NCBI RefSeq assembly: GCF_000373925.1
Contig: NZ_KB892767.1
Coordinates: forward strand, 1 to 64,000
Origin: Actinopolymorpha alba DSM 45243
GTDB lineage: Bacteria > Actinomycetota > Actinomycetes > Propionibacteriales > Actinopolymorphaceae
Direction of reading: 5' to 3'
DNA: 64,000 nt
The position numbers were made by a program, and so were the translations under genes. Of the stretch, positions 2,113 to 41,200 are shown one piece after another; position 1 is the first letter of the stretch, and each line of letters starts with the position of its first letter. The notes under the pieces are model-generated. The model did not search any database and had not been told where the DNA came from. It saw only the letters and a program-made list of their open reading frames with translations.

Positions 2113-3807
2113 ATGCTGAACCGCTCTGGTGGACATCGGGTTCGCCGGACGTCGCGGTGGAGCCTCGCCCGTCAACTGTTCGTCCTGCAGGTCCTCCTGG
2201 TGGTCCTCATGGTCATCGGAGGGACGGCCGTCGCCTACCTCGATGCCCGCCAGCGCGCCCTCACAACCGCTGACCAACGGGTGACGGGGGTCGCCGAAAC
2301 CCTCGCCGAGACGCCGACCGTCCGCGCGGCCCTCGACCTGCCCGAGCCGTCGCGCGTGCTCCAGCCGTACGCCGACCGGGTCCGTGCGCAGACCGGCGTC
2401 GACTTCATCACGATCATGACGCCGTCCGGTATGCGGTACACCCACCCGAATCCCGCCCTGATCGGGAAGCCGTTCCTGGGACATATCGGGCCAGCTCAAC
2501 GCGGAACGACGTTCACCGAGACGTACGCCGGCTCGCTCGGCCCGTCGCTGCGGGTGGTCACCCCGATCATGGAGGCCGGCCGGGTGCGCGGGCTGATCAG
2601 CGTCGGCATCACCCTCGACGCCATCGGGCGGGACCTGCGCGGCCGGGTGATCGCCCTCGTCGAGGTCGCCGCCCTCGCGCTCCTCCTCGGCGCCGCCGGC
2701 ACCTACGTGATCAACCTGCGGCTCCGACGGGCGACCCACGGTCTTGGCCCGACCGAACTGTCCCGGATGTACGAGTACCACGACGCGATGGTGCACGCGG
2801 TACGAGAAGGTCTCATCCTGCTCGACCAGGAGCGGCGGATGACCCTGTGCAACGACGGTGCCCGGCATCTCCTCGGCCTTCCCGCCCAGGCCGACGACCG
2901 TCCGGTCACCGAACTCGGCCTACCGCCCGGGCTCACGCAGGCGCTGCTTGACGATCAGCCACGCCGCGACGAAATCCATGTGACCGACGACCGGGTCCTC
3001 GTCATCAACACCTCGCCCGCCGAGTCCGACGGCCGGCGGGTGGGTACGGCGGTGACCCTCCGGGACCAGACCGAGTTGCGGGCGCTGATGGGTGAGCTCA
3101 ACACCACCCGGAGCCTCACCGAGTCCCTGCGCTCGCAGGCGCACGAGTCGGCGAACCGCCTGCACACGATCGTCTCCCTCATCGAGCTGGGCCGGGCCGA
3201 CGACGCCGTACGCTTCGCCACCGCTGAGCTCGAGTCGGCCCAACAGCTCACCGACCTCGTGGTCGGCGCCGTGACCGAACCCGTCATCGCCGCACTGCTG
3301 CTCGGCAAGACGGCCGAGGCGAGCGAGCGCGGTGTCGAGCTCCTCATCACCCCGGACACCGAGGTGGGTCCCGGCGTTCAGCTCGCCGACCTCGAGCCCC
3401 GTGACCTGGTGACCATCCTGGGCAATCTGGTCGACAACGCGATCGACGCCGCCGCCGGCAGGGAGCCCGCACAGGTGCAGGTGACGGTACGCAACGACGG
3501 CAGCGAGCTCACCCTCCGCGTGGCCGACAGTGGCCCGGGCCTGGACCCGACCATGCTGGGCGACGCCTTCCAGCGAGGCTGGTCGACCAAATCCGGTGAC
3601 CCGCTCGTGGGACGGGGCCTCGGGCTCGCCCTGGTCGGGCAGGCGGTACGCCGGCAGCACGGCCAGATCGAGGTCACCCGGGGCGACTATGGTGGCGCCG
3701 CGTTCACGGTCCGGCTCCCTTTGTCTGACCGGGACGGTAACGGCGGCGAGGCCGGTGGCGACGGACGGCAGACCGTACGACCGGTTGTACGACAGGAGGA
3801 GCCGTGA
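2113..3807 (+). CDS. Sensor histidine kinase, DcuS/CitA family
   Basis: A 564-residue membrane sensor kinase. Transmembrane helices at about 21-43 and 179-201 enclose a periplasmic PAS/sCACHE-like sensor (about 45-175). The HGLGPTEL signature after TM2 is typical of CitA/DcuS kinases. A cytoplasmic PAS domain follows (about 216-320). The phospho-acceptor is H344 in SQAHESANRLHTI, a SpoOB-type dimerisation helix. The HATPase has the N-box ILGNLVDNAID and the G boxes ADSGPGL and GRGLGLALV. It most likely senses C4-dicarboxylates or citrate, because the cognate regulator and a DctA-type symporter follow directly. The stop overlaps the regulator start by four bases. Confidence 0.93.
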   Translation: MLNRSGGHRVRRTSRWSLARQLFVLQVLLVVLMVIGGTAVAYLDARQRALTTADQRVTGVAETLAETPTVRAALDLPEPSRVLQPYADRVRAQTGVDFITIMTPSGMRYTHPNPALIGKPFLGHIGPAQRGTTFTETYAGSLGPSLRVVTPIMEAGRVRGLISVGITLDAIGRDLRGRVIALVEVAALALLLGAAGTYVINLRLRRATHGLGPTELSRMYEYHDAMVHAVREGLILLDQERRMTLCNDGARHLLGLPAQADDRPVTELGLPPGLTQALLDDQPRRDEIHVTDDRVLVINTSPAESDGRRVGTAVTLRDQTELRALMGELNTTRSLTESLRSQAHESANRLHTIVSLIELGRADDAVRFATAELESAQQLTDLVVGAVTEPVIAALLLGKTAEASERGVELLITPDTEVGPGVQLADLEPRDLVTILGNLVDNAIDAAAGREPAQVQVTVRNDGSELTLRVADSGPGLDPTMLGDAFQRGWSTKSGDPLVGRGLGLALVGQAVRRQHGQIEVTRGDYGGAAFTVRLPLSDRDGNGGEAGGDGRQTVRPVVRQEEP

Positions 3808-4523
3808 TCAGCGTCCTGGTGGTCGAGGACGACCCGGTCGCGGCCGACGCGCACCGGTTGTACGTCGAACGCCTGTCCGGCTTCGCGGTGGCGGGTGTCG
3901 CCCACTCCGGCCGGGATGCCATGCGCATCCTCGAATCCCGGGCCGCCGCCGGCGAACCCATCGATCTGGTGCTCCTCGACCTCTATCTCCCTGACACGCA
4001 CGGGCTCGACCTGTGCCGTGCCCTGCGCGCCACCGGCCAGCGCTGCGACGTGATCGCAGTGACGTCCGCGCGCGACCTCGGCGTCGTACGTGCCGCGGTG
4101 TCGGTGGGAGTCGTGCAGTATCTCCTCAAGCCATTCACGTTCAGCACGTTGCGGGACAAGCTCGAGCGGTACGCGAAGTTCCAGGACCAGCTCGCCGTCA
4201 AGGGCGAGGCGGCCAGCCAGCATGACATCGACCGGGCGTTCGGCACCCTCCGCAGCTCCGAGGCCCACCTCCCGAAGGGCATGAGCCCCGAGACCCTCGA
4301 CGCGGTCCTCGACACGGTGAAGGGCTCCTCGACTGGCATGTCGGCCGCGATGGTCGGCGAGCGGCTCGGGATGGCGCGGGTGACCGCCCGCCGTTACCTC
4401 GAGTACCTCGCGGACAACGGCATCGTCGTTCGCCGTCCCAAGTACGGACAGGTCGGGCGGCCCGAGGTTCAGTACCACTGGCTGCCGGCAGACAAGGGCC
4501 GAAACGTCCGCGAAACACAATGA
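3804..4523 (+). CDS. Response regulator, CitB/DcuR family
   Basis: A 239-residue transcriptional response regulator. The receiver domain (about 1-120) has the acidic pair ED at 8-10 and phospho-acceptor D59 in LVLLDLYLPD. The switch region has VTSAR and a conserved Lys in LLKPF. The C-terminal half has a helix-turn-helix of the CitB type (GERLGMARVTARRYLEYL). The GTG start overlaps the kinase stop and is preceded by AGGAGG, so the two proteins are probably made by coupled translation. Its likely target is the symporter gene that begins 91 bases downstream, although no operator repeat was evident in that gap. Confidence 0.92.
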   Translation: MISVLVVEDDPVAADAHRLYVERLSGFAVAGVAHSGRDAMRILESRAAAGEPIDLVLLDLYLPDTHGLDLCRALRATGQRCDVIAVTSARDLGVVRAAVSVGVVQYLLKPFTFSTLRDKLERYAKFQDQLAVKGEAASQHDIDRAFGTLRSSEAHLPKGMSPETLDAVLDTVKGSSTGMSAAMVGERLGMARVTARRYLEYLADNGIVVRRPKYGQVGRPEVQYHWLPADKGRNVRETQ

Positions 4524-4614
4524 ACACAAGGCTGCCAAGGAGTGAGACCTGGGCCACAGTCGTGCGGTGAATCTCGGGGGACGACAACCACACGTCACGG
4601 ACCAGGAGATCTCT

Positions 4615-6003
4615 ATGGCCGGCCAACCACCCTCGCGCGACACTGCCTCGTCGCGGGTCCGCCGCGACCGAACCCACCTGCTGTATCCCGCCGTGATCGT
4701 CGCCGTTCTCGCCGGCGTCGTGGTCGGTCTGGTGTTTCCCGATGTCGGTACGCAGCTCAAACCGATCGGCACCGGCTTCGTCAACCTGATCAAGATGATG
4801 ATCAGCCCGGTGATCTTCTGCACCATCGTCCTGGGGGTTGGTTCGGTTCGCCAGGCCGCCAAGGTGGGCAAGGTCGGTGGTCTCGCGCTCGGCTACTTCC
4901 TTGTGATGTCGACGGCCGCGCTGGCCATCGGCCTGGTCGTCGGCAACCTGATCCAGCCGGGATCGGGCCTGCACCTCAGCCAGGAGCTGCGCGAAGCCGG
5001 CCAGGCCCAGGCGCCCACCGAGGCGAAGAACACCGTCGACTTCCTGCTCGGAATCATCCCCACCAGCCTCCTGTCGGCCCTGACCCAGGGGGAAGTCCTC
5101 CAGACCCTGCTCATCGCCCTGCTCGTGGGGTTCGCGGTCCAGGCACTGGGCCGCCACGGCGAACCCGTCATCGCGGCGCTCACCGTGGTGCAGCGGCTGG
5201 TCTTCAAGATCCTGGCGATGATCATGTGGCTGGCGCCGATCGGCGCATTCGGTGCGATCGCCGCGGTCGTCGGAGCGACCGGTGTGGACGCGCTCATCAG
5301 CCTCGGTCAGATCATGCTCGGCTTCTACGCGACCTGCGTGGTCTTCGTGTTCGTACTCCTCGGCGCTCTCCTGCGCCTGGTGACCGGTCTGTCCATCTTC
5401 TCGCTGCTGTCATACCTCCGGCGGGAATTCCTGCTCATCGTGTCCACCTCGTCGTCGGAGTCGGCGCTTCCCCGCCTCATCGCCAAGATGGAGCACCTCG
5501 GCGTCAGCAAGCCAGTTGTCGGTATCACCGTGCCGACCGGCTACTCGTTCAATCTCGACGGCACCGCCATCTATCTCACGATGGCATCGCTGTTCGTGGC
5601 GGACGCACTCGGCAAACCCCTGGCGATCGGTGAGCAGGTGTCACTGCTGGTCTTCATGGTGATCGCGTCCAAGGGCGCTGCCGGTGTCACTGGTGCTGGG
5701 CTTGCCACGCTCGCGGGCGGCCTGCAGAGCCACCGGCCGGACCTGCTCGACGGCGTTGGCCTGATCGTCGGGATCGACCGCTTCATGTCTGAGGCCCGGG
5801 CCCTGACCAACTACGCCGGCAACGCGGTGGCCACCGTCCTCGTGGGGACGTGGACCGGGGAGTTCGACAAAAAACGCGCCCGTGCCGTCCTCGCTGGCGA
5901 GCACCCCTTCGACGAGTCGACGGTGATCGACGAGCATGGCAGTGGCGCCGCCAACCCAGCGAGTAGTAAGGCGGCGAACACTCCTCAGCCAGTGGGTTCG
6001 TGA
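4615..6003 (+). CDS. dctA: C4-dicarboxylate:cation symporter, DctA-like (DAACS/SLC1 family)
   Basis: A membrane symporter of about 462 residues for succinate, fumarate, malate or a related dicarboxylate. Family hallmarks are the serine-rich hairpin STSSSESALPRL, the substrate-site segment GYSFNLDGTAIY, the second hairpin SKGAAGVTGAG, and the TM8-like segment GIDRFMSEARALTNYAGN with the substrate-binding Arg/Asn. The ATG at 4615 is preferred over an in-frame GTG at 4567 because AGGAG lies 8 bases before it. The frame runs on to 6003 with a hydrophilic tail. With the upstream kinase and regulator it forms a sense-and-import cassette. Glutamate/aspartate transport is possible, as the family covers both. 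Confidence 0.9.
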   Translation: MAGQPPSRDTASSRVRRDRTHLLYPAVIVAVLAGVVVGLVFPDVGTQLKPIGTGFVNLIKMMISPVIFCTIVLGVGSVRQAAKVGKVGGLALGYFLVMSTAALAIGLVVGNLIQPGSGLHLSQELREAGQAQAPTEAKNTVDFLLGIIPTSLLSALTQGEVLQTLLIALLVGFAVQALGRHGEPVIAALTVVQRLVFKILAMIMWLAPIGAFGAIAAVVGATGVDALISLGQIMLGFYATCVVFVFVLLGALLRLVTGLSIFSLLSYLRREFLLIVSTSSSESALPRLIAKMEHLGVSKPVVGITVPTGYSFNLDGTAIYLTMASLFVADALGKPLAIGEQVSLLVFMVIASKGAAGVTGAGLATLAGGLQSHRPDLLDGVGLIVGIDRFMSEARALTNYAGNAVATVLVGTWTGEFDKKRARAVLAGEHPFDESTVIDEHGSGAANPASSKAANTPQPVGS

Positions 6004-6199: not shown

Positions 6200-9100
6200 T
6201 CAGCCAGAGCGGGTGCTGTTTGGGGTGGAGGTGCGGTCGGCAGTCAGCTCAACCGCAGGATTGCCTCGCCACCGGGCGTGGGCTGGTACGTGTTCGCCCT
6301 TCATCAGGAAGGAGTCGGCGTCGATCTGGGCATGTTCGTCGATGACGACGCCGTAGTGCACGAAGGCGCTGGTACCGATCGTGCAGCCAGTGCCGATGGT
6401 TATGCGGTCGGACTTGAAGACGCCTTCTTCGAGGGAGTGCGCCTGCAGGATAGTGCCGGCGTTGAGGGCACAGTCGTCGCCGATCTGGGTGAGAGTCCGT
6501 TCCAGGATTCTGCAGCCGTCGTCGAAGACACGGTGACCCATGCGGACGCCGAGGAGCCGCCAGACGAGGGGTTTGGCAGGAGTGCCGTTGAAGAGGGCGA
6601 GGTACTCGATGGGCGTCACCTTCCAGTACCGCTCGTGCCGCCAGAAGGGCCGCTCGTAGATGGAGCAGAACCGTGGCCGCAGGGCGTGGAAACCCAGCAC
6701 GGCCCGTTCCGCCACGACGAAGAACCCGACTGTGAAAGCGAGTTCGAGCAGGGCTGTGCCGGCCGTCTCCAGCCAGTACAGCGTGCCGTTGTTGGCCAGC
6801 GGAAGCATGGCGATCAGCAGCAGACCGTAGACGTAGAGGCATCGCACGGTCAGGAACAGGGCCATCGTCATGGCGTTGTGGCGGTTCTTGGCCGCGAGAC
6901 GGCGCCGGAACTCCGGTCCCGTGCGGAGGTGGTCGAAGCGGTGGTCGCGCTGAACCGAACGCGGGATCTCGATGGGCGGTGAGCCGAGCAGTCCGGTGTT
7001 CTCCTTGACCGGACCACTGACCGGAATCATGGCCTTGGTGGCCAGCAAACAGTTGTCGCCGGTCCTGCCGCCGGCCGGATAGACGATGTTGTTGCCCAGG
7101 TAGGTGTGGTTGCCGATGGCCACCGGGGCGGCGCGGAAGGAGGTGCTGGAGAACTCGGCGTTGGCCATGGACAGGCCGTCGGAGACCATGGTTCCGGTGC
7201 CGACCCGGGCGAGCGCGGGGACCTCGTGTTTGAGCATGGTGCCGAAGTTGGTTCCGGTCTGCTCGACCGGCGCCAGCCGGTATCCGAGGCCCTTCAGATA
7301 GTGCACGATCGCCGAGCTGTCGCCGAACAGGGTGATGAAGAAGCGGATGTTGGTTAGCCGGGCGACGGCGCGCTGGAGTGTGAAGCGCACTCCGTACAGC
7401 GGGTAGACGGTGTTCGGCTGGAGGGGACGGGACAGTACGCGCGACAGGACCGGGACGAGGACCGCTCCCAGGATGGCGAGGCCGAATACCGTGGCCGCCG
7501 CGATCTCCAGGCCATCGGCGTAGTACCTCCAACTGCCCGGCCCGACCGCTCCGGTCAGGCTGCGGACCAGCGCGGGCCGGGAATCCAGCAGCGCGGCGAG
7601 GACCACCTCGGCAACGCCGACGGTGATCGCCAGCGCCAGCACCATGACGAGGCTGTGGCACACGCGCCGCAGACGGCCGCAGCGGGCCGGCGGAACGGTG
7701 AGGTACTCAGCCCCCTCCGGCGCGGGCTGCGCCGGCGATCCGTGCCAGCACTGTCCGGCAGGTATCGACTGGCCTTCGTGCAGCGAGGAGGCATGACCGA
7801 GCTGAGCGGCGTCGCCGACGCGAACGCCGATGTCCAGAGTGCTCTGCTCGCCGACGAAGGCGCCGGCACCGATGGTGACCGGGCCGGTTTCGATGACTCC
7901 GTCGCGGGCTCGGTAGCCGTTGAGGCGGGACTCCTTGCGGATCACGCTGTCGGCCCCGATGGTCAGCAGGTCGGTGCACACCGGTACCCACCGGGTGAGG
8001 ATCAGGGCGCGCGGTCCGATCTTGGCGCCCAGGGCCCGCAGGTACAGGGTGTACAGCGGCGTTCCGACGGTCAGCCGGGCCAGCAGGTTGGTGGCGATGA
8101 GGGTTCTGACACACCAGAAGCGGAAATAGGCCACGCTCCACAGACGGATGCGCTGCGGCTTCCACCGTCCGATGAGCACCCATTTCGCGACGACGGGCAG
8201 CAGGCCCGCAGCAACCAGCGCCCCGGCACCGAGGATGACCGCGCGTTCGTAGACGCTGAGCCACCCCTGTCCCCGCGCCATCCACGACGTACCGGCGTCC
8301 AGCAGGACCGAAGCAAGACACACATATGCCAGGAACGCCACGAACTGCAGAATCCCGCACAGGGCGTACCGGGGCGTGCCCACGGCTGGAGCCTCCGGCC
8401 GCAGTGGCGTGGCCGGGGCGGGGGACGGCGCCTCGTCCAGGGTCGCGGCCAGTTGACGCACGGTGGGGTGCTGGTAGACGTCCTTTATCGATATGCCGGG
8501 CAGGTCCGGTCTCTTGCGGGCGGCCGCGTTGAATTGCGCCATGAGCAGGGAGTTGGCGCCGAGGTCGTCGAAGAAGTGGCTGTCCACGGAGACCCGGTCC
8601 ACCCGCAGGATTCCGGCCAGCAGCTCGGCCAGCGCCCGTTCTGTGTCGGTGCTCGGAGCCGTGTCACCGCCCGGTGCGGTGAGCCGGCGCGGCCCGGTTG
8701 GTGGTGGCAGTTGGCGGCGGTCGGCCTTGCCGCTGGGCAGCATCGGTATCGACGCGATGTGTTCGAGGTAGGCGGGGATCATGTAGCCGGGCAGCCGATC
8801 CCGCAGATATGTCAGGGTGCGTTCCGGATCCACGGCCGTGCCGTCGCGGGCGGTGTAGTAGGCGCATAGTTCCACGGTCCCCGGAATGATCTCCCGCTCG
8901 CTGACCACCGCCTGGGCGATCCCGGGCACGCGCAGCAGCACCGACTCGATCTCGGTCAGCTCCACGCGGTAGCCGCGGATCTTGACCTGGGTGTCGATGC
9001 GGCCATGGTGCTCGACCTCGCCATGGGCGTTGATCCGTCCCAGGTCCCCGGTGCGGTAGATCCTGCCGGACGGATTCCCGGCCATGCCGAGAAAGTCCGG

Positions 9101-10354
9101 GATGAAGCTACGTTCGGTCACGTCCGGCCGGTTGAGGTAGCCGCTGGCGAGCCCGATCCCGCCGATCGCGATCTCCCCCAACGTGTCGGGTGGCAGCACG
9201 GTGTCCTGCTCCGGGTCCAGGACGACCACCGAGTACGTCGGCAGCGGAACACCGATCGTCACCGGACGGTCGGGCGCCAGCGGGGTCCAGGTGGCGCTGA
9301 CGGTCGCCTCGGTCGGGCCGTAGACATTGAGGAATCGACGGCCGGGGCGGCACCAGCGGGTGACGAGGTCCTGCGGACAGGATTCCCCCGATACCAGCAG
9401 GAACCGCAGCTCGGAGGTGGTCTCGTTCAGCGTGGCCAGCAGGGTGGGAACGCAGCACATGGCTGAGATCCGCCGCTCGCGCAGGAACACGTCCAACTCG
9501 GCACCCAGCAGGCCGGGCCCCTCGGGTCTGGGCACCAGCGTGGCACCAGCCATCCATGGCACCCATATCTCCTCGACGGAGAAGTCGAACGCGATGGTCA
9601 TCCCCTGGTAGACCCGGTCATCGGAGGTGATGCCATAGACCTCCGAGGCCACCCGGACGAAGTTGCACACCGCGGGGTGGCCGATGGCCACCCCCTTCGG
9701 ACGGCCGGTGGACCCGGAGGTGTAGATGACGTAGCACAGATCGTCGGCTGGCTCCCCGACAGCCATGGGGTCGAGGCGATCAGGGGACTGCTCCGCTATC
9801 CGCGACCGCATCCGGTCCAGATACAGCAGATCGACGCTGTCCGCGAGACGTCCCATCCGCTCGGCGAGCCGCGAGAGCGACAGGACCACGCGCACCGAGG
9901 CGTCAGAAACGATGTAGGACAACCGATCCGGCGGAAACCCGATGTCCAACGGCACGTACACGGCATGCGCCTTCAACACGGCCAGCATCCCCGCATAGGC
10001 GTCCACCGCGTCATCGAGCAGCAACCCGATCCGATCGCCGGGCCGTACGCCCTCAGCGATCAGGAAACGAGCAAGCCGGTTGGCCTTTTCGTCCAGCTGC
10101 GCGTACGTCAGGACGACGTCACCGGCGTCCACCGCGAGCCCGTCGGCGTTCCCCTGCGCGCGCATCCGGTCACAACGCTCCTCGAACAACCGCTCAAGCC
10201 GTTCGCCGTCCCGCCACTGGACCGTACCGTCCCAGCCAGCACAGGCGAGCACACCATCCGGACCGCTCCGCGACCTCGGAAACCGCACCTGCGGCGACCC
10301 TCCCCTGACCGCCCCTTTCCGGGCACTTTTTCCTTTGCGGTTCAATACCAACAT
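6200..10354 (-). CDS. Pls/PosA-type membrane single-module NRPS (cationic homopoly-amino-acid synthetase-like)
   Basis: A protein of about 1384 residues in three parts. The adenylation domain (about 60-550) has YVIYTSGSTGRPKGV, NVYGPTEATV, IYRTGDLGR and the terminal Lys in LPSGKADR. A carrier domain (about 570-640) has phosphopantetheine Ser602 in DDLGANSLL. The membrane region (about 660 to the end) has six or seven helices and three hexapeptide-repeat, left-handed beta-helix acyltransferase-like blocks. There is no condensation or thioesterase domain. This layout and size match epsilon-poly-L-lysine synthetase (Pls) and relatives, which polymerise one amino acid at the membrane. The hand-read specificity residues begin D-F-E; the E suggests a basic substrate, which is inference. 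ATG 10354 has GGAGGA 9 bases upstream, so it is preferred to the GTG at 10417. The gene stands alone, with no obvious peptidase or exporter partner. Confidence 0.9.
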   Translation of the reverse strand: MLVLNRKGKSARKGAVRGGSPQVRFPRSRSGPDGVLACAGWDGTVQWRDGERLERLFEERCDRMRAQGNADGLAVDAGDVVLTYAQLDEKANRLARFLIAEGVRPGDRIGLLLDDAVDAYAGMLAVLKAHAVYVPLDIGFPPDRLSYIVSDASVRVVLSLSRLAERMGRLADSVDLLYLDRMRSRIAEQSPDRLDPMAVGEPADDLCYVIYTSGSTGRPKGVAIGHPAVCNFVRVASEVYGITSDDRVYQGMTIAFDFSVEEIWVPWMAGATLVPRPEGPGLLGAELDVFLRERRISAMCCVPTLLATLNETTSELRFLLVSGESCPQDLVTRWCRPGRRFLNVYGPTEATVSATWTPLAPDRPVTIGVPLPTYSVVVLDPEQDTVLPPDTLGEIAIGGIGLASGYLNRPDVTERSFIPDFLGMAGNPSGRIYRTGDLGRINAHGEVEHHGRIDTQVKIRGYRVELTEIESVLLRVPGIAQAVVSEREIIPGTVELCAYYTARDGTAVDPERTLTYLRDRLPGYMIPAYLEHIASIPMLPSGKADRRQLPPPTGPRRLTAPGGDTAPSTDTERALAELLAGILRVDRVSVDSHFFDDLGANSLLMAQFNAAARKRPDLPGISIKDVYQHPTVRQLAATLDEAPSPAPATPLRPEAPAVGTPRYALCGILQFVAFLAYVCLASVLLDAGTSWMARGQGWLSVYERAVILGAGALVAAGLLPVVAKWVLIGRWKPQRIRLWSVAYFRFWCVRTLIATNLLARLTVGTPLYTLYLRALGAKIGPRALILTRWVPVCTDLLTIGADSVIRKESRLNGYRARDGVIETGPVTIGAGAFVGEQSTLDIGVRVGDAAQLGHASSLHEGQSIPAGQCWHGSPAQPAPEGAEYLTVPPARCGRLRRVCHSLVMVLALAITVGVAEVVLAALLDSRPALVRSLTGAVGPGSWRYYADGLEIAAATVFGLAILGAVLVPVLSRVLSRPLQPNTVYPLYGVRFTLQRAVARLTNIRFFITLFGDSSAIVHYLKGLGYRLAPVEQTGTNFGTMLKHEVPALARVGTGTMVSDGLSMANAEFSSTSFRAAPVAIGNHTYLGNNIVYPAGGRTGDNCLLATKAMIPVSGPVKENTGLLGSPPIEIPRSVQRDHRFDHLRTGPEFRRRLAAKNRHNAMTMALFLTVRCLYVYGLLLIAMLPLANNGTLYWLETAGTALLELAFTVGFFVVAERAVLGFHALRPRFCSIYERPFWRHERYWKVTPIEYLALFNGTPAKPLVWRLLGVRMGHRVFDDGCRILERTLTQIGDDCALNAGTILQAHSLEEGVFKSDRITIGTGCTIGTSAFVHYGVVIDEHAQIDADSFLMKGEHVPAHARWRGNPAVELTADRTSTPNSTRSG

Positions 10355-10576
10355 TGTCGGCTTCCTCCGTGGACGCGGACCACTGACTGGTTCCGACGCT
10401 ATGAAGAAGGCCCCCACAGCTCGCTCTGGCGAAGGTTACGTGCCGGCAAAAGTGGTCACAGCCGGCGGGAAATGAGCTGGCCCTGGTGAATCGCCCGGGT
10501 GTCCGGAGAGCTCATTCATTGGGATGACTCTCATGGCACGCGCCCCTCGTCCTCGGCTGAGAGTTGTATCGAGGAA

Positions 10577-11171: not shown

Positions 11172-11927
11172 ATGACCAGCACAACCGGCAGGGTCGTATT
11201 GGTAACCGGGTCCAGCAGTGGAATCGGCGCGGCCACCGCGCGACTGCTGGCCGCACGCGGGATGCGCGTGGTGATCAACTACCTGCACAGCGCCAAAGCG
11301 GCCGAGGAGGTCGTCGCCGACATCGAGGCCACCGGCGGCCAGGCCATGGCCATCCAGGCCGACGTGTGCGAGCCCGCGGCCGTCGAAGCCCTGCTCGAAC
11401 GCGTGCGCGCCGCGTGGGGCGGCGTCGACGTGCTGGTCCACAACGCGCTCACGCCGTATGCCATCAAGCCGTTCCAGGACATGACCTGGAAAGAACTGGG
11501 CGGCAAGGTCGACGACGAGATGCGCGCCGCGTTCGTGGTCACCAAGGCCGTACTACCGGCGATGACCGAAAACCACTGGGGCCGGCTGATCTACCTCGGC
11601 ACCGGCCTGAGCCGTCAACCGCGCGCCGGCATGATCGCGCTGGGCACGGCCAAGGCGGCGCTCACCCAGTTCGCCCGTTACCTCGCGCAGGAACTGGGTC
11701 CGCAGGGCGTCACCGTCAACGTGGTCGAGCCCGGTCCGGTGGCCGAGACCACCATGTCGACCGTGCTCGACGACGAGGTCAAGCAGCGGCAGGTGGCCGC
11801 GACCCCGTTGGGCCGGCTGGCCCGTCCCGCCGACGTGGCCAACGTGGTCGCCTTCTACGCCAGCGAGGACAACGCCTTCATGACCGGCACCACCGCCGCG
11901 GTCAACGGCGGATTGGCGATGTACTGA
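11172..11927 (+). CDS. Short-chain dehydrogenase/reductase with atypical active site
   Basis: A 251-residue Rossmann-fold SDR with the cofactor motif TGSSSGIG at about 12-19, a DV pair after strand 3 (ADVC) and the family ending NGGLAMY. Chain length and layout match FabG-like classical SDRs. The catalytic tetrad is altered. Where classical enzymes have YxxxK, this protein reads LGTAK (Lys kept, Tyr replaced by Leu). The Ser position reads GTG (Thr). The NNAG motif reads HNAL. It may therefore bind NAD(P) without normal dehydrogenase chemistry. ATG 11172 follows GTGAGG. A THI5/NMT1-like gene starts 25 bases downstream and is probably co-transcribed. Confidence 0.88.
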   Translation: MTSTTGRVVLVTGSSSGIGAATARLLAARGMRVVINYLHSAKAAEEVVADIEATGGQAMAIQADVCEPAAVEALLERVRAAWGGVDVLVHNALTPYAIKPFQDMTWKELGGKVDDEMRAAFVVTKAVLPAMTENHWGRLIYLGTGLSRQPRAGMIALGTAKAALTQFARYLAQELGPQGVTVNVVEPGPVAETTMSTVLDDEVKQRQVAATPLGRLARPADVANVVAFYASEDNAFMTGTTAAVNGGLAMY

Positions 11928-11952
11928 GCCCCGGCGCGGAAAGGACACGGAC

Positions 11953-12837
11953 ATGCTCACCATCGATCTGGCCTACGTCGGGCGGGGCCTGCACGAGGAG
12001 TTGGTCGCCTACGTCGCCGACCAGGAGGATTTCTACGCCGCCGAGGGCGTGCACGTGTCCCTGCGCGACGGCTGCGCCTGGGACATCCAGCGGCTGCGGC
12101 CCGTGGCCACCATCGGTCTCGGCCGGGCGCTGCTGTCCCGGCTGACCGACGGGATTCCGTGGGTGGCGCTCAGCGTCAACACCGACCGACCGCTGTTCTG
12201 GTTCCTGGCCCGCGCCGGCCTGACCTCGTTGCCCGACCTGGCCGGCCAACGGCTCGCAGTGCACGCGCCGCACACCCCGCCCGGCAGCTTCGCCCGCATC
12301 GTGTTGCGCCAGGCCGGTCTCGATCCCGACCGCGATGTGCAGTGCGTCGTCCGGCCGCCCGGCGACTACGGCCTGGACCTGCGTCACCTGCGCGAGGGCG
12401 AGATCGACGCCGCCTACGTCGGCAGCACCATGGCGCCGGAGGCGATCGCCGCCGAGTACGGCTGGAATGTGCTGGCCTGGGTCGGCGACCACTTCCAGAT
12501 CCCCACGGTGGGTCTGGCCGTCGACCCCACTCACCTGTCGCCCGACGACCCCGCCGTGCTGGCCGTCATTCGCGCCCATCGCCGTGCTCTCCAGGTGATC
12601 CACACCGATCCCGACACCACGGTCCGGCATATGCGGACCTTCCTGGGCCAGCACACCGAAGCCGAGGCCCGCGCCCACTACGACACCTTCATCGCCCCGT
12701 ATTTCACCACCGACGGCCACGCCGACCTCGCCGTGGGCGCCGCCGGAATCGCGGCCGTCGCGGCCGAACTCGGCGTCCCGCACACCGTCACCGCCGCCGA
12801 CTTCTACCGCACCACAACCATTACACCGGGGAGTTGA
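11953..12837 (+). CDS. THI5/NMT1-like (SsuA-type) substrate-binding fold protein without signal peptide
   Basis: A 294-residue periplasmic-binding-protein-like fold of the NMT1/THI5 family: ADQEDFYAAEGVHV near the N-terminus, GIPWVALSVN, DLAGQRLAVHAP, and EIDAAYVGSTMAPEAI. Exported members feed pyrimidine, sulfonate or nitrate ABC importers; soluble members act in pyrimidine metabolism. Here the protein starts MLTIDLAYVGRGLHEE, with no signal peptide or lipobox, and no permease or ATPase is adjacent apart from a broken ATPase on the other strand. A cytosolic ligand-binding or enzymatic role is therefore more likely than transport. The preceding SDR gene probably lies in the same operon. The exact substrate cannot be told. 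Confidence 0.78.
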   Translation: MLTIDLAYVGRGLHEELVAYVADQEDFYAAEGVHVSLRDGCAWDIQRLRPVATIGLGRALLSRLTDGIPWVALSVNTDRPLFWFLARAGLTSLPDLAGQRLAVHAPHTPPGSFARIVLRQAGLDPDRDVQCVVRPPGDYGLDLRHLREGEIDAAYVGSTMAPEAIAAEYGWNVLAWVGDHFQIPTVGLAVDPTHLSPDDPAVLAVIRAHRRALQVIHTDPDTTVRHMRTFLGQHTEAEARAHYDTFIAPYFTTDGHADLAVGAAGIAAVAAELGVPHTVTAADFYRTTTITPGS

Positions 12838-12863
12838 GCAGGAAGATGCGCGGTCATGGACGT

Positions 12864-13210
12864 CTATCCGGTGACACCGGCACCGCCTGCCGCAGCCGTG
12901 TGCCCTTGGAGATCACGTACACCTGCGATCCCGCCCCGTCCACGTCCCCCACCATGACGGTCTGCCCGGCGTCCGAGCCTCCCGGACCAGTTGCAGGAAC
13001 TCCTGCCGCATAAGCGGATCGAGCCGCTGGTCGGCTCGTCGAGGATCAGGAGCTCGGGTTCGTGCATGAACGCCTGGACCACGCGCACCGGGCCGTACGT
13101 CGGCCGGATCAAATCCAGCAGCAGGCGGATCGTCGTCGTCTTGCCAGCGCCATTGGGCCCGGCCCGAGGTAACCGAAGACCTCACCTATGTGGACCTCGA
13201 GGTCGAGGAG
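12864..13210 (-). pseudogene. ABC-2-type transporter ATPase, decayed
   Basis: Pieces of one ABC ATPase lie in different minus-strand frames. A Walker A region reads GEVFGYLGP then PNGAGKTTTIRLLLDLIRPT. A Walker B/D-loop region reads MHEPELLILDEPTSG then LDPLMRQEFLQLVREAR, and the tail reads GDVDGAGSQVYVISKG. Frameshifts lie inside the P-loop, in the D-loop and after LVREAR. About 70-80 residues (Q-loop and LSGGQ signature) are missing between RPTYGPVRV and VQAFMHEPE. It cannot make a working ATPase. It lies head to head with the TetR gene at 13305, a common arrangement for drug-efflux ABC systems. Confidence 0.82.
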
Positions 13211-13304
13211 CAGTGGCTTGACCCGACAGATGGCCAGCGAGTAGCTTCCGGGTGTCCAGTGAATGACTAATTACGCTCATCCGGTCAATATCTTGGGAGT
13301 GCGG

Positions 13305-14027
13305 ATGGTCGGAAGAGGGCGCACGGCGCGCGCCCACCGCATCCTCGACGCCGCCGAGGAGCTGATCCTGCGCTTGGGCTACAACAAGACGACCCTCGAT
13401 GACGTCGCCCGGCTCGCCGGCGTACCCAAGAGCACGATCTATCTGCACTGGACCACGCGGGACACGCTCTTCGCCGCGCTCCTCCGCCGGGAACGCCTGG
13501 TCATGGTCGAAGCGATCCAGCATGAGGTCACGCGGTCCGCCGACCGGATCACGCTGCCCGAACTCCTTCGCACCCTGGCGCTCGAAATCGCCCGGCGCCC
13601 CCTCCTGCGAGCCGCCCTCCTGCAGGACAACGAGGTGCTGGGCCGGCTCGTCGCGCAGAAGCGCCAGAGCAACCAGGCGACGGCCACCGCCGGACTCGAG
13701 CACTACCTCGAGACCCTGCGGGCCCTCGGCGTGGTCCGCACTGACTTCTCCCTGGCAGACCACGTCAACGTCATCAGCATGGCGACGTACGGAGCCTTCA
13801 TGACCGGCCCGATGCTGCCCGACGATCTCAGGCTCTCTGACGAGCGGCGCGCCGAGCTCATCGCCGAGACCGTGCACCGCACGCTCGCGATCGACCGGCC
13901 GCTCTCCTCCGAGGACGCCGAAGCGATCTCGAAAGCCACCCGCGAGTTCCTCGACACCGCGGTGGGGATCGCACGGGACAAGCTCGCGCAGTCCCTCGCC
14001 CCTCCGCATGGAAAGGACCGCACGTGA
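13305..14027 (+). CDS. TetR-family transcriptional regulator
   Basis: A regulator of about 240 residues. The N-terminal HTH reads AHRILDAAEELILRLGYNKT then TLDDVARLAGVPKSTIYLHW, the classical TetR DNA-binding unit. The C-terminal domain is all-helical and not recognisable. ATG 13305 is chosen because GGGAG lies 5 bases upstream and the HTH begins at the usual distance; the frame also opens at 13263. The last codon overlaps the GTG start of the phosphotransferase-like gene, so the two are translationally coupled. It probably represses itself and that enzyme in response to the enzyme's substrate. An ABC ATPase remnant lies divergently upstream. Confidence 0.9.
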   Translation: MVGRGRTARAHRILDAAEELILRLGYNKTTLDDVARLAGVPKSTIYLHWTTRDTLFAALLRRERLVMVEAIQHEVTRSADRITLPELLRTLALEIARRPLLRAALLQDNEVLGRLVAQKRQSNQATATAGLEHYLETLRALGVVRTDFSLADHVNVISMATYGAFMTGPMLPDDLRLSDERRAELIAETVHRTLAIDRPLSSEDAEAISKATREFLDTAVGIARDKLAQSLAPPHGKDRT

Positions 14028-16624
14028 CCTCACCGGCGACGAACCCACCACCGATCTCGTGGGTGCTCCCGCTCGATGACAACCGCGCTACCAGCCTCGC
14101 ACTGACCGGAGGGAAGGGCGCGTCGCTCACCCGGCTCGCGATCGCGGGCCTGCCCGTCCCCCCGGGATTTCACCTCACGACCAGGGCGTACCAGGAGTTC
14201 GTCGACCGGAACGGCCTCCGGGATCAGATCCTGGCGATCCTCGCGAGGACCACCATGGACGAGCCCGCGTCGGTCGAAGCCGCGTCCGCGCGGATCAGGG
14301 AGCTGTTCGCCAAACGCGAGTTGCCAGCTGCGATCGCCGAGGCGATCCGCAAGGCCTATGCGGGGATGGGCGGAAACGAGCCGGCGGTCGCGGTGCGTTC
14401 CTCGGCCACCGCCGAGGACCTGCCGGAGATGTCGTTCGCCGGACAGCAGGACACCTTCCTCAACATCCACGGCGAGACGATGCTGCTGGCGGCGGTCAAA
14501 CGCTGCTGGGCCTCACTGTGGACCGCACGGGCGATCGACTACCGCGCCCGCCATGACGTTCCCTCCGGCGACGTCGCGCTCGCGGTCGTCGTGCAACGGC
14601 TCGTACCCGCCGACGCGGCCGGCATCCTCTTCACCGCCGACCCGGTCACCGGAGCCCACGACCAGGTGCTGGTCAACGCCGCCTGGGGACTCGGCGAGGC
14701 CGTCGTCGGCGGGCAGGTCACCCCGGACACCTATCACGTCGATCGCACGAGCGGCGCGGTCACCGAGCAGCGGATCAGCGACAAGACGGTCATGACCGTG
14801 CGTACGGCGGAGGGTACGCACGAGGTGGCGGTGCCCGCTGATCGGCGTACCCACGCGGTGCTCGACGACGAGCAGGCGGCCGGACTCGCCCGGCTCGGCG
14901 TCCGCATCGAGGAGCTCTACGACCAGCCGATGGACGTCGAATGGGCCATGCACGACGGGTCCTTCTTCATCCTCCAGGCCCGACCGATCACCGGGCTGCC
15001 AACAGCGACACCAGGCACCGAGGAGTGGAACGACAGCCTGACCGGCGACTACCTGTGGACGTGCGCGAACCTCGGTGAGGCCATCCCGAGCGTGATGACG
15101 CCCTGCACCTGGTCACTGGTCCGGATCTTCATGTCCGAAACGATGTCGCTCTCCCACGTCGGACCGCACCGCATCTCCGGCAACATCGGCGGGAGGTTCT
15201 ATCTCAACCTCAGCGTCACCATGTCGGTCGGCACAGCCCTCGGCGTCACCAAGCTCATCAGGCAGGCCAGCGAGCAGGCCGTCGGCCGGATTCCTGACAC
15301 CGTGGGGATCCCGCCGTTGCCGATGTCACGATGGCAGGTCGTACGCGAGGCGTTGTCGAGTGCCGTGCCGTTCCTCGGGCGGGTGCTGGCGTACCAGAAG
15401 AGGTTGCCGGCGCTCCTCGCGGAGGCGCCCGCACGCTGTGAAGCGGCCCGCACCGCGATCCGGTCCGCGAACGACGCCGCCGACCTCGCCGCAGTGTGGC
15501 GGACCACCGTCGACCCCCTCCTGCGTGACGTCAGCCGGATGCTCGCAGCGGGCGCCCGCCTGAACGGCGCGGGCCTGATCCAGATCCGTCCGAAGGTAGG
15601 CAAGCTGGTGGGCGAAGCCGACACAACCACACTGCTCACCGGGCTGCACAAGGGCGCCAACCAGCTCGCGAGCCTCGGCCCGGTGGTCGGCCTCGCCCAG
15701 GTCGCGCGCGGCGAACTCGACCGGGAGACCTACGTCCGTCAGTGGGGACACCGCTGCCCGGACGAGTTCGAGGTGTCGACGGCTCGACCGGCCGAGGATC
15801 CGCAATGGATCGACCGGCAACTCGAGTCCCTTCGTGATTCTGAGCACGATGCGACCGCGTTGCTCGCCCGCCAGGAGGAGGCCCGCACGGCCGCCTGGCA
15901 GAGGTTCGAGCGGACGCACCCGCGCAAGGTCAAGGCGCTGCGCCGCCAGATCGAGCGGGCCGCGGTCGCCGCCCGCGCCCGCGAGGACGCCCGCTCGGAG
16001 GTGATCCGCGCGTTCTGGGTCCTGCGGGACTTCGTCGTGTGCGCCGGTGACCTGACCGGTCGGGGCGAGGATCTGTTCTTCCTGCCGATCGAGGAGATCC
16101 TCGACCTCCTCCACGGCGACGACACGGTGCTGGACGCGGTGCCGACCCGCCGGGCGACGTACGAACGCTATCGCGCGCTCCCGCCGTACCCCACGCTCAT
16201 CCGTGGCACCTTCGACCCGTTCCGGTGGGCCGCCGACCCGAACCACCGGGTGGATGTCTTCGACGACCACCACGAACTCGCCCCGGTCAGTGACTCGATC
16301 AGTGGCTTCCCCGGCGCCGCCGGTGTGGTCGACGGCACGGCTCGGGTGATCCACAGCGTGGACGAGGGCGATCAGCTGCACGCCGGGGAGATCCTGGTGA
16401 CCACCGTGACGAACGTCGGATGGACGCCGCTCTTTCCGCGCGCGGCGGCGGTCGTGACAGACATCGGCGCACCGCTGTCCCATGCCGCGATCGTCGCGCG
16501 GGAACTCGGCATCCCCGCGGTGGTCGGCTGCGGCAATGCCACCATGCGGGTACGCAGCGGCGACCGCATCCGTGTCGACGGCGAACACGGAACGGTCGAG
16601 ATCCTGGCGTCCGCCAACCCCTGA
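14024..16624 (+). CDS. PEP-synthase-fold dikinase, rifampin-phosphotransferase-like
   Basis: An 866-residue enzyme with the layout of rifampin phosphotransferase (Rph). The ATP-grasp domain (about 1-325) has GGKGASLTRL, AVRSSATAEDLPEMSFAGQQ and ILQARPITG. A large middle substrate domain covers about 326-740. The C-terminal swivelling phospho-His domain has H820 in GAPLSHAAIVARELGIP. Rph uses ATP to phosphorylate rifamycin on its ansa bridge, giving AMP and Pi; length and order fit. However, no inverted repeat like the rifamycin-associated element is visible upstream, and control appears to lie with the overlapping TetR gene, so the substrate may be another natural product. It converges on rluB with a 9-base gap. 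Confidence 0.87.
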   Translation: MTSPATNPPPISWVLPLDDNRATSLALTGGKGASLTRLAIAGLPVPPGFHLTTRAYQEFVDRNGLRDQILAILARTTMDEPASVEAASARIRELFAKRELPAAIAEAIRKAYAGMGGNEPAVAVRSSATAEDLPEMSFAGQQDTFLNIHGETMLLAAVKRCWASLWTARAIDYRARHDVPSGDVALAVVVQRLVPADAAGILFTADPVTGAHDQVLVNAAWGLGEAVVGGQVTPDTYHVDRTSGAVTEQRISDKTVMTVRTAEGTHEVAVPADRRTHAVLDDEQAAGLARLGVRIEELYDQPMDVEWAMHDGSFFILQARPITGLPTATPGTEEWNDSLTGDYLWTCANLGEAIPSVMTPCTWSLVRIFMSETMSLSHVGPHRISGNIGGRFYLNLSVTMSVGTALGVTKLIRQASEQAVGRIPDTVGIPPLPMSRWQVVREALSSAVPFLGRVLAYQKRLPALLAEAPARCEAARTAIRSANDAADLAAVWRTTVDPLLRDVSRMLAAGARLNGAGLIQIRPKVGKLVGEADTTTLLTGLHKGANQLASLGPVVGLAQVARGELDRETYVRQWGHRCPDEFEVSTARPAEDPQWIDRQLESLRDSEHDATALLARQEEARTAAWQRFERTHPRKVKALRRQIERAAVAARAREDARSEVIRAFWVLRDFVVCAGDLTGRGEDLFFLPIEEILDLLHGDDTVLDAVPTRRATYERYRALPPYPTLIRGTFDPFRWAADPNHRVDVFDDHHELAPVSDSISGFPGAAGVVDGTARVIHSVDEGDQLHAGEILVTTVTNVGWTPLFPRAAAVVTDIGAPLSHAAIVARELGIPAVVGCGNATMRVRSGDRIRVDGEHGTVEILASANP

Positions 16625-38265: not shown

Positions 38266-41200
38266 GTGGACAAGGTGCGTCTACGTGCGGTCCGGTCGCT
38301 CGTCGGTGGAGTCGCGGCAGCAGCGTTGCTGGTCGGCATGGGCCCGATCACGACCGCCACCGCCACCGCCACCACGCACACCGGCCGGACCAGCACGCCG
38401 GACCCGAAGGACAAGATCAAACCGAAGCTCGAACAACGCCTGGCCGCCGACCGTCCGGCGAACTTCTGGGTGCGCTTCACCGCCACCGCCGACCTGTCGC
38501 GAGCCAGCGCGATCAAGGACTGGAACGCGCGGGGTACGGCGGTCGCCAAGGCACTGCGGGACGTCGCCCAGACGAGCCAGCGAGACGTCATCGCCACCCT
38601 CAAGGACGAGGGCGTCGACTACCAGGCGTTCTGGGCCACGAACGCGGTCTATGTCCGGCAGGGCTCGCTCGAGCTCGCCGAGCGGCTCGCGGCCGAGGCG
38701 GAAGTCCAGGCGTTGTATCCGACCACGGCGTACGCCGTACCCAAGCCGGTCAATGGCAAGGACGTCAACGAGGTCGACGACGTCGAGTGGGGCATCGCGA
38801 ACATCAACGCCGACGACGCCTGGTCGCAGTACGACGTCCGGGGTGAGGACATCGTCGTTGCCAACATCGACACCGGCGTGCAGTACGACCACCCTGCCCT
38901 GGTCAACCAGTACCGCGGTAACAAGGGCGACGGGACCTTCGACCACAACTACAACTGGTTCGACGCGGCCGGCGTCTGCGGTGACGCGCCCTGCGACAGT
39001 TACGGGCACGGCACCCACACGATGGGGACGATGGCCGGCGACGGCGGGTCTGGCAACCGGATCGGCGTCGCCCCGCACGTCAAGTGGATCGCGGCGAACG
39101 GCTGCTGCCCGAGTGACGCGGCGCTGATCGCGTCCGGCCAGTGGATGCTGGAGCCGACCGATCTCGCCGGTGAGAATCCGGACGTGAGCAAGCGTCCCCA
39201 CATCATCAACAATTCCTGGGGTTCGCAGGTCCCGTCGAACGACCCGTTCATGGAGGACGTCACCGACGCCTGGACAGCGTCGGGCATCTTCAGTAGCTGG
39301 TCGAACGGCAACAACGCACCGGGCTGCCTGACGAGCGGTTCACCGGGTAGCCGGACCGCGAACTACTCGGTCGGCGCGTACGACAACACGAACACGATCG
39401 CGTCCTTCTCCAGCCGTGGCGCGGGCCAGGACCGCGAGATCAAGCCGAACATCGCAGCCCCCGGTGTGAACGTACGCTCGGCAGTGCCGGGCAGCGGCTA
39501 CCAGAGCTACAACGGGACGTCGATGGCCGCACCGCATGTGGCCGGCACCGTCGCGTTGTTGTGGTCGGCGGCGCCCACCCTGGTTGGCGATGTCGCCGGG
39601 ACCCGCGCGCTGCTCGACCGGACGGCTGCCGACCATCCCGACGACGAGTGCGGTGGCACCGACGCGGACAACAACGTGTACGGCGAGGGACAGCTGAACG
39701 CACTAGCCCTCCTGGACGCCGCGCCCGTCGCCGAGACCGGCACTCTGGGGACGACCGTCAAGGACGGTGGCACGGGCGACCCGATCGCCGGTGCGAAGGT
39801 CAGCGTCACCGGCCCGGTCAACCGCGAGCGGACCACCAGCGCCGACGGCAGGCTGTCGCTACCTCTGCCGGTCGGCACGTACACCGTGACCGTGTCCTCC
39901 TTCGGCTACGCGGACGAGACGGTCAGCGTCGAGGTCACGAGCGGCGGGACCACGTCCCGCACGATCGGGCTGCGGGCGACGCCCAGGGTCACGGTCACCG
40001 GCCGGATCACCGACGGCTCGGGTCAGGGCTGGCCGTTGTACGCGAAGCTCACGGTGGCCGGCATGCCCGGCGGGACGTTCATGACCGCGCCGGCGACCGG
40101 GCGGTACTCCCTCAGCCTGCCGGCTGGCGCGACGTACACGCTCACGATCGACCCGGACTATCCGGGCTATGAGACGGTGACCGACAAGGTGACGGTCGGC
40201 TCGACGAGCGTCACCCACGACATCGCCGTACCCGTCGACGCCCAGGCCTGCACGGCTCCCGGCTACCACTACACGTACGACGGGGCGTTCGCGGACTTCA
40301 CCACCGGGCTGCCGGCAGGGTGGAGCGTCGTCGACAACAACGGCAGCGGCGAGGTGTGGCGGTTCGACGACCCGTACGACCGCGGCAACCGCACCGGCGG
40401 CGACGGAGCGTTCGCGATCGCCCAGAGCTCCGGGCACGCGACCCTCGACTCGACTCTTTCGACTCCGGTGGTCGACCTGCGTGGCCAGCGGGCGCCGGAG
40501 ATCAGGTTCCGCCAGGACTTCTACCCGCTCGTCGGTGTGAGCGAGGTCGACCTCAGCACGGATGGTGGGAAGACCTGGGAGAACGTCCTCCGCCAGACGA
40601 CGAGCGCCCGCGGGCCGGTCGAGAAGGCCATCGCGATCCCGCAGGCAGCCGACCAGCCTGACGTGCGGGTGCGGTTCCGATACTCCAACGCGCAGTACAA
40701 CTCGCGGTTCTGGCAACTCGACGACATCGTGGTCGGTACGCGGTACTGCTCGCCGAAACCAGGCGGCCTCGTGCTGGGTCACGTGCGTGACCGCAACACC
40801 GGCGATCCCGTCAACGGCGCCACGATCAGCAGCAAGGAGCGCCCGCTGGAGACGGCGGAGTCGCGGGCCACGCCGGACGACCCGAACCTGCCGGACGGCT
40901 TCTTCTGGATGTACTCCTCGCTGACCGGCAAGCGGGAGTTCACCGCCGTGGCCGACAGCTATCAGACCCACACGCTGAAGGTCGCCGTGGTCGACGGCGG
41001 GGCGGCTCAGCCGGCGTTCCGGTTGCCGGCCGGGCGGCTCTCGGTGAAGCCGGCCGACATCGTGGCGACGGTCCGCTCGGGCCGGACGACGACGGGGACG
41101 TTCGTCGTGACCAACACCGGGTCGGCGCCAGCCAAGGTGGAGTTCAGTGAGGGCGCCGGAGGCCGGGTCCCGCTCGCGGCCAGTCGTACGCCCGGGAGCG

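What the first reader, a model, noticed from the sequence alone, without database searches (positions are those of the whole stretch)
6200..10354. Orphan Pls-type homopoly-amino-acid synthetase
One gene encodes adenylation, carrier and a membrane domain with three tandem acyltransferase-like beta-helix blocks, the build of epsilon-poly-lysine synthetase. No condensation or release domain is present. The pocket residues read by eye start D-F-E, hinting at a basic amino acid. It could make an undescribed cationic polymer. This is the strongest natural-product candidate in the window.
Basis: partly seen in the sequence, partly recalled or inferred. Interest (0 to 1): 0.7.

Follow-up and report, generated by a model that had tools for sequence, protein, structure and literature searches.

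The report
Poly-diaminobutyrate synthetase with split pathway
This actinobacterial gene very probably builds a known kind of positively charged antimicrobial chain from the amino acid 2,4-diaminobutyrate, and the genes that make that building block sit elsewhere in the genome under a matching control sequence.

Summary
In detail: window 6200-10354 (-) is an intact 1384-residue Pls/PosA-family synthetase (TIGR02353, 687 bits, cut-off 423) with adenylation, carrier and a six-helix, three-beta-helix membrane domain. "Undescribed polymer" is not supported. The pocket is D-F-E-C-L-S-V-V-S-K; phenylalanine second is reported for diaminopropionate/diaminobutyrate synthetases (PMC10522769). Of 52 full-length homologues with a DFE pocket, 38 have a diaminobutyrate transaminase (dat), a similar aminotransferase or an aspartate kinase (ask) within 3 kb; in four Pseudonocardia dat is fused to the synthetase. 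The window's genome has no diaminopropionate genes over cut-off but carries dat-ask-phosphopantetheinyl transferase on another contig behind a broken Pls relic. That operon and the window gene share a 62-base upstream element, 56/62 identical, found exactly twice in the 7.98 Mb assembly. Best reading: a horizontally acquired gamma-poly-L-2,4-diaminobutyrate synthetase fed in trans. New member of a known kind; the unusual part is the split pathway tied by a dedicated promoter element. The product is untested.

The parts
6200..10354 (-). Pls/PosA-family homopoly-amino-acid synthetase, 1384 aa, predicted gamma-poly-2,4-diaminobutyrate synthetase
   Evidence: intact; dN 0.107, dS 0.35 against the L008 homologue
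8696..10201 (-). adenylation domain (about residues 52-553)
   Evidence: core motifs present by reading; pocket DFECLSVVSK
9296..9586 (-). substrate pocket residues D257 to S353 (with K543 at 8726-8728)
   Evidence: aligned to PosA 8g95/8g97 and Pls 7wew (K543 lies outside that alignment; taken)
8438..8635 (-). carrier (thiolation) domain, LGANS with Ser602
6203..8437 (-). membrane polymerisation domain: three transmembrane helix pairs, each followed by a beta-helix-like block (residues 640-1384)
   Evidence: TIGR02353; model; repeat test; fold matches
10391..10452 (-). upstream (promoter-like) element shared with the dat-ask operon on contig C80 (TTTTGCCG-N5-TAACC ... TAGCGT core at 10396-10451)
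   Evidence: 56/62 identical, E 8e-18; exactly 2 sites in the assembly
10364..10368 (-). Shine-Dalgarno-like GGAGG before ATG 10354
   Evidence: read from the sequence printed

Best explanation
The gene encodes a gamma-poly-L-2,4-diaminobutyrate (L-Dab) synthetase. The adenylation domain activates Dab with ATP; the carrier thiol on Ser602 holds it; the membrane domain (three helix pairs with three hexapeptide acyltransferase-like blocks) joins Dab units repeatedly through the gamma amine and leaves the alpha amines charged. Dab comes from aspartate through an aspartate kinase that lacks the usual C-terminal part, the housekeeping aspartate-semialdehyde dehydrogenase (assumed, not searched), and the transaminase Dat. 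ask, dat and a phosphopantetheinyl transferase lie in one operon on another contig (C80) behind a broken Pls relic and beside a two-component system. A near-identical upstream element stands before both operons, so synthetase and precursor supply are probably switched on together. Shown here: domains, pocket, linkage and fusion in relatives, the element pair. Inferred: substrate, L configuration, gamma linkage, that the element is a promoter, co-regulation, export.
For: Family. Pocket: DFECLSVVSK; F at position 2 reported for PDAP/PDAB synthetases. Linkage: of 52 full-length DFE homologues, Dat of at least 60% identity to the C80 Dat within 3 kb in 25 (4 of them as one PLS-Dat open frame), weaker Dat-like (35-37%) in 11 more, ask in 23, any of these in 38, SbnA/SbnB in 1. 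In trans: 4 close relatives without a dat in the DNA held around the synthetase (L011, L012, L029, L049) carry a dat-ask pair elsewhere, dat 73-79% identical to the C80 one. Own genome: dat 424.9 bits against a cut-off of 401.6, ask, phosphopantetheinyl transferase, Pls relic 45 bits. No SbnA/SbnB over cut-off. Element; in L007-L009 and L132 the same motif lies directly before dat. One DapF only. Phylogeny: a starred 4-row clade with S. endocoffeicus, S. rugosispiralis and S. hygroscopicus (quick tree).
Against: No product, activity or expression data. The code does not separate Dab from diaminopropionate: the paper gives F for both. 14 of 52 homologues have no dat or ask within 3 kb (several of them sit near a contig end). 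The other synthetases that lie apart from dat-ask do not carry the element: G009, G010, G011 and G013 have no site, and G012's only site is before dat, so the paired element is seen only in the window's genome among split cases. The Pls relic on C80 is not a copy of the window gene: its blastp matches are 30-54% identical over short stretches and tblastn with the window protein gave no significant hit there (best E 0.086), so that operon may once have served another synthetase. PddB is only weakly like DapF, so a racemase could be missed. The assembly is 95.9% complete, so absences are provisional. A second dat exists in what looks like a siderophore cluster.
Confidence: 0.72

Rival explanations
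1. It is a beta-poly-L-2,3-diaminopropionate (Dap) synthetase like PDAPs of S. albulus, which also has F at pocket position 2 and whose precursor genes also lie away from the synthetase gene.
For: F at position 2 is reported for both PDAP and PDAB synthetases; precursor genes in trans have a precedent there.
Against: No SbnA or SbnB over cut-off in the genome (best 252 of 350 and 98 of 327 bits); the element pair links it to dat-ask; relatives are linked or fused to dat, and the relatives with SbnA/SbnB neighbours lie outside the window's 10-row clade and are mostly split genes. Caveat: the score that the S. albulus Dap enzymes would reach against these two families was not measured.
Confidence: 0.09
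2. It makes the D polymer, as PddA of Streptoalloteichus hindustanus does.
For: PddA also draws on a pathway-specific Dat and Ask; the code alone does not tell L from D here.
Against: PddB is described as encoded next to pddA; the genes beside the window synthetase are other families, a DapF motif scan of the neighbours of the homologues found none, and the genome has one DapF match only. A weakly similar racemase could be missed.
Confidence: 0.1
3. It makes a polymer not yet described (another diamino acid, or a mixed chain).
For: Pocket position 9 is S instead of the usual T, and the PosA Thr304 contact is V344.
Against: The S variant also occurs in L015, which has an adjacent dat, and in L048, which has an adjacent Dat-like gene; V at the Thr304 place and all other pocket positions equal those of the dat-linked majority.
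Confidence: 0.05
4. The gene is intact but idle: the pathway is decaying after transfer, as the broken Pls relic suggests.
For: A Pls relic on C80; ask there is short, 272 aa.
Against: dN/dS about 0.3 against L008, core motifs intact by reading, element kept before both operons and 90% identical. Open frames for ask are also short (302-374 aa) in L007, L008, L129, L130 and L132, though 433 and 468 aa in L009 and L131.
Confidence: 0.12

Closest known systems
gamma-poly-L-diaminobutyrate synthetase PldA with dat and ask (named in a figure legend of PMC8117764; the synthetase paper itself, Yamanaka 2020, was not read)
   Same: Same architecture; same precursor genes in the genome and next to homologues.
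   Different: Here the synthetase lies apart from dat-ask, with which it shares an upstream element.
poly-D-Dab synthetase PddA with racemase PddB (PMC8225329, part 1 of 5 and passages seen)
   Same: Architecture, Dat and Ask supply.
   Different: No second DapF-like gene found.
poly-L-Dap synthetase PDAPs (PMC4668381, parts 1-2 of 5 and passages seen)
   Same: Architecture; F at pocket position 2 (PMC10522769); precursor genes away from the synthetase.
   Different: This genome lacks SbnA/SbnB over cut-off.
delta-poly-L-ornithine synthetase PosA (PMC10522769; 8g95-8g98)
   Same: Family; D and E that bind the two amines.
   Different: F for M at position 2, V for Thr304; C and L at positions 4 and 5.
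epsilon-poly-L-lysine synthetase Pls (7wew adenylation domain)
   Same: Family and layout.
   Different: Pocket begins D-A-E in Pls, D-F-E here.

Membership tests
Pls/PosA family (TIGR02353) | terminal membrane domain over the curated cut-off | tested here: met
   687.1 against 423.1 bits, profile 1-695/695
Pls/PosA family (TIGR02353) | A and T domains, no condensation or thioesterase domain | tested here: met
Pls/PosA family (TIGR02353) | three TM helix pairs with three related soluble blocks | tested here: met
Pls/PosA family (TIGR02353) | D and E that hold the alpha and side-chain amines | tested here: met
   D257 and E261 align with PosA D217 and E221
gamma-poly-L-Dab synthetase (PldA type) | F at pocket position 2 | tested here: met
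   rule from PMC10522769; shared with PDAP synthetase
gamma-poly-L-Dab synthetase (PldA type) | dat and ask in the gene cluster | tested here: inconclusive
   not beside the gene; present on contig C80 under the same upstream element
gamma-poly-L-Dab synthetase (PldA type) | activates and polymerises L-Dab | not testable with these tools
   needs biochemistry
poly-D-Dab synthetase (PddA type) | PddB racemase gene coupled to the synthetase | tested here: not met
   genes on either side are other families; one DapF match in the genome
beta-poly-L-Dap synthetase (PDAPs) | Dap synthesis genes (SbnA/SbnB type) in the genome | tested here: not met
   none over cut-off in a 95.9% complete assembly
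epsilon-poly-L-lysine synthetase (Pls) | A at pocket position 2 | tested here: not met
   F258; Pls reads D-A-E
delta-poly-L-ornithine synthetase (PosA) | M at pocket position 2 | tested here: not met
   F258

The most novel reading that the evidence does not exclude
A horizontally acquired homopolymer pathway split between distant loci yet held together by a dedicated two-site promoter element, probably read by the two-component system beside dat-ask. In the window genome the two sites stand before the synthetase and before the relic-dat-ask operon; in three Streptomyces relatives (G006-G008) they stand before dat-ask-synthetase and before a lipoprotein gene (followed in L009 by genes that read as an ABC transporter), a candidate for protection against the polymer.
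Probability: 0.5. Interest if true: 0.5.

Novelty: new member of a known kind. Interest (0 to 1): 0.4.

Why it matters
It turns an 'orphan, unknown polymer' call into a testable substrate and pathway, and shows that such synthetases need not sit beside their precursor genes. The upstream motif gives a handle on regulation. The PLS-Dat fusions in Pseudonocardia link this pocket to diaminobutyrate. Cationic isopeptide polymers are of interest as preservatives and as antifungal or antiviral agents (PMC8117764).

Tried and rejected
DcuSR-DctA beside the gene was considered as precursor supply. The trio recurs near the synthetase in L012 and L049, in another gene order (L043 has only a DcuS-like protein at 32%), and was left unexplained. 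The second dat of the genome (C2, 518 bits) was set aside because its neighbours look like a siderophore cluster (read by eye and by blastp between loci, no family search). Dap supply was rejected. A polymer-degrading protective peptidase was not searched for. A sigma-70 promoter and terminator scan found nothing, so 'promoter' for the element rests on position and conservation alone. A first ungapped scan for the element was useless: the window scored 26 of 40 and shuffled sequence reached 25; the gapped motif replaced it. No solved chain with the full membrane domain came up by sequence (weak hexapeptide hits, best E 0.00096) or in the structure listings; the latter rank only what Foldseek passed on, so absence there proves nothing. 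Rows dropped before the counts: the window itself, homologues with an incomplete A or C part (for example L029, L053, L056) and the loci with split genes only; L037 counts twice because it holds two full-length genes. The 78 loci are the best 80 hits of 184 relatives, so the counts describe near relatives. The Dat-like proteins at 35-37% identity were seen against TIGR00709 only in L057 and L013 (both over cut-off). Whether the genome of L010 has a dat-ask pair was not examined.
Full report
What is there. The window holds one intact 1384-residue gene at 6200-10354 (-). It matches the NCBI family TIGR02353, 'Pls/PosA family non-ribosomal peptide synthetase', over the full profile with 687 bits against a cut-off of 423. 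Pfam finds an AMP-binding domain with its C-terminal part, a carrier domain and weak hexapeptide repeats, and no condensation or thioesterase domain. It is the only match over the family's cut-off among 5 matches in the genome. The core adenylation motifs and the carrier serine are intact (read; pocket and LGANS). Against the L008 homologue dN is 0.107 and dS 0.35, which fits purifying selection.

The membrane domain. An AlphaFold2 model of residues 640-1384 from 63 homologues has mean pLDDT 87.7 and pTM 0.89, with three long-helix pairs, each followed by a strand-rich block. Profile-profile comparison shows that the blocks are related: 1 with 3 at 6.4e-21, 1 with 2 at 1.9e-9, 2 with 3 at 2.4e-5, against 0.015 to 0.31 for reversed controls. 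Structure comparison finds hexapeptide acetyltransferases, best Z 7.8 and mostly on block 3; at that Z the match supports the fold type only. This agrees with the description of PosA's C-terminal domain in PMC10522769 (section read).

The substrate. The pocket reads D-F-E-C-L-S-V-V-S-K. The register is clear, because the stretch aligns without gaps to PosA (8g95, 8g97) and with a single gap to Pls (7wew). D257 and E261 correspond to PosA D217 and E221, which bind the two amines; F258 replaces PosA M218. PMC10522769 (results parts 1-3 of 4, discussion and modelling section read) reports F at this place for diaminopropionate and diaminobutyrate synthetases, M for ornithine and A for lysine. So a short diamino acid is expected, but the code does not separate Dab from Dap.

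Gene neighbourhoods separate them. From genome contigs 78 loci with homologues were fetched, the best of 184 relatives. Of 54 full-length synthetase genes examined, 52 have a DFE pocket. Of these 52, 25 have a diaminobutyrate transaminase (Dat) of at least 60% identity to the C80 one within 3 kb, 11 more have a Dat-like aminotransferase at 35-37%, 23 have an aspartate kinase, 38 have at least one of these, and 14 have none. One of 52 has SbnA/SbnB (L039). In four Pseudonocardia (L020, L040, L046, L062) Dat and the synthetase are one open frame of 1995 to 2216 codons. SbnA/SbnB, the diaminopropionate genes, were found in 15 of the 78 loci, L039 among them; all 15 hold a second adenylation gene of another pocket type, and these loci lie outside the window's clade.

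The window's own genome. SbnA and SbnB homologues stay under cut-off. Two dat genes pass. One (contig C2) sits in what looks like a siderophore cluster. The other (contig C80, locus L122) is the middle of an operon: a Pls relic, dat, ask, and a phosphopantetheinyl transferase, with a two-component system upstream. The relic keeps part of a Pls membrane block and reads like a Pls C-terminal end after it; its identification rests on TIGR02353 (45-48 bits) and blastp hits of about 1e-5, and it is not a copy of the window gene. The ask matches only the kinase part of aspartate kinases (1-253 of 421), so it probably lacks feedback control (inference). dat and the histidine kinase are 78-79% and 68-70% identical to genes beside the synthetase in L007-L009. 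Four relatives without a dat in the DNA held around the synthetase (L011, L012, L029, L049) also keep dat-ask elsewhere, so the split arrangement recurs.

The promoter link. The sequences upstream of the window gene and of the C80 operon share 56 of 62 bases (E 8e-18). A 29-base pattern from it, allowing 3 mismatches, occurs exactly twice in the 7.98 Mb assembly and in none of 13 other genomes. A looser form, TTTTGCCG-N5-TAACC-N24..36-TAGCGT, occurs twice in each of G000, G006, G007 and G008, once in G012, and in none of the other 15 of 20 genomes; the backward control has no match. In L007, L008, L009 and L132 it lies directly before dat. The second copy in G006-G008 lies directly before a lipoprotein gene, which in L009 is followed by genes that read as an ABC transporter (by eye). 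A homologue of that lipoprotein, 49% identical, exists in G000 on C48 without the exact motif. Against a general rule: the other split cases have no site before their synthetase (G010, G011, G013 none at all; G012 one, before dat). The simplest reading for the window genome is one regulon. A shared origin of the two upstream regions by duplication is the alternative and does not exclude co-regulation.

Origin. Of 6 genomes of the genus, the window's own included, only the window's own has the gene; of 196 genomes of the order, 2 have a membrane-domain match, the window's own and one at 32% identity (in which at most 5 candidates per genome were scored). The nearest relatives found are Streptomyces of the hygroscopicus kind at 81-82%.

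L or D. PMC8225329 (part 1 of 5 and passages seen) shows that poly-D-Dab needs the DapF-like racemase PddB, encoded next to pddA. Here there is a single DapF match and no DapF motif among neighbours of the homologues. L-Dab is therefore likelier, with the caveat that PddB is only weakly like DapF.

Verdict. It works like, and probably is, a gamma-poly-L-Dab synthetase, a known kind (PMC8117764 results section with figure legend read). The points that I did not see in print are the in-trans precursor operon with the shared element, and the PLS-Dat fusions in relatives. The paper searches listed no paper whose title or shown abstract start describes them; most subscription papers, Yamanaka 2020 among them, are not in that library.

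Noticed in passing
L061, L064, L067-L071, L073, L075-L077, L080, L082, L084 (and L039): Pls-like membrane protein with its carrier and a separate adenylation gene (pocket DIWQSTADDK or one letter off), with SbnA/SbnB beside them: a split, probably diaminopropionate-based relative.
   Followed up: partly
L020, L040, L046, L062: Synthetase and diaminobutyrate transaminase fused in one open frame of 1995-2216 codons in Pseudonocardia.
   Followed up: partly
L039, L058, L059: Adenylation domains with damaged pockets (catalytic K to M, or GGECVSALAH) in full-length synthetases; L039 also carries the separate adenylation gene.
   Followed up: no
window 2113-6003; also L012 and L049: DcuS/DcuR-like two-component system and DctA-like transporter near the synthetase in three genomes, in different gene orders.
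   Followed up: partly
window 11172-16624: Short-chain dehydrogenase, NMT1-like protein, TetR-type regulator and a PEP-synthase/RedH-like protein in a row, possibly a small biosynthetic operon.
   Followed up: no
L121 (contig C2 of the window's genome): A second dat in what looks like a siderophore cluster with counterparts in G002.
   Followed up: partly
window 38266-42390: 1374-aa protein with subtilase, carboxypeptidase-regulatory and Kelch domains.
   Followed up: no
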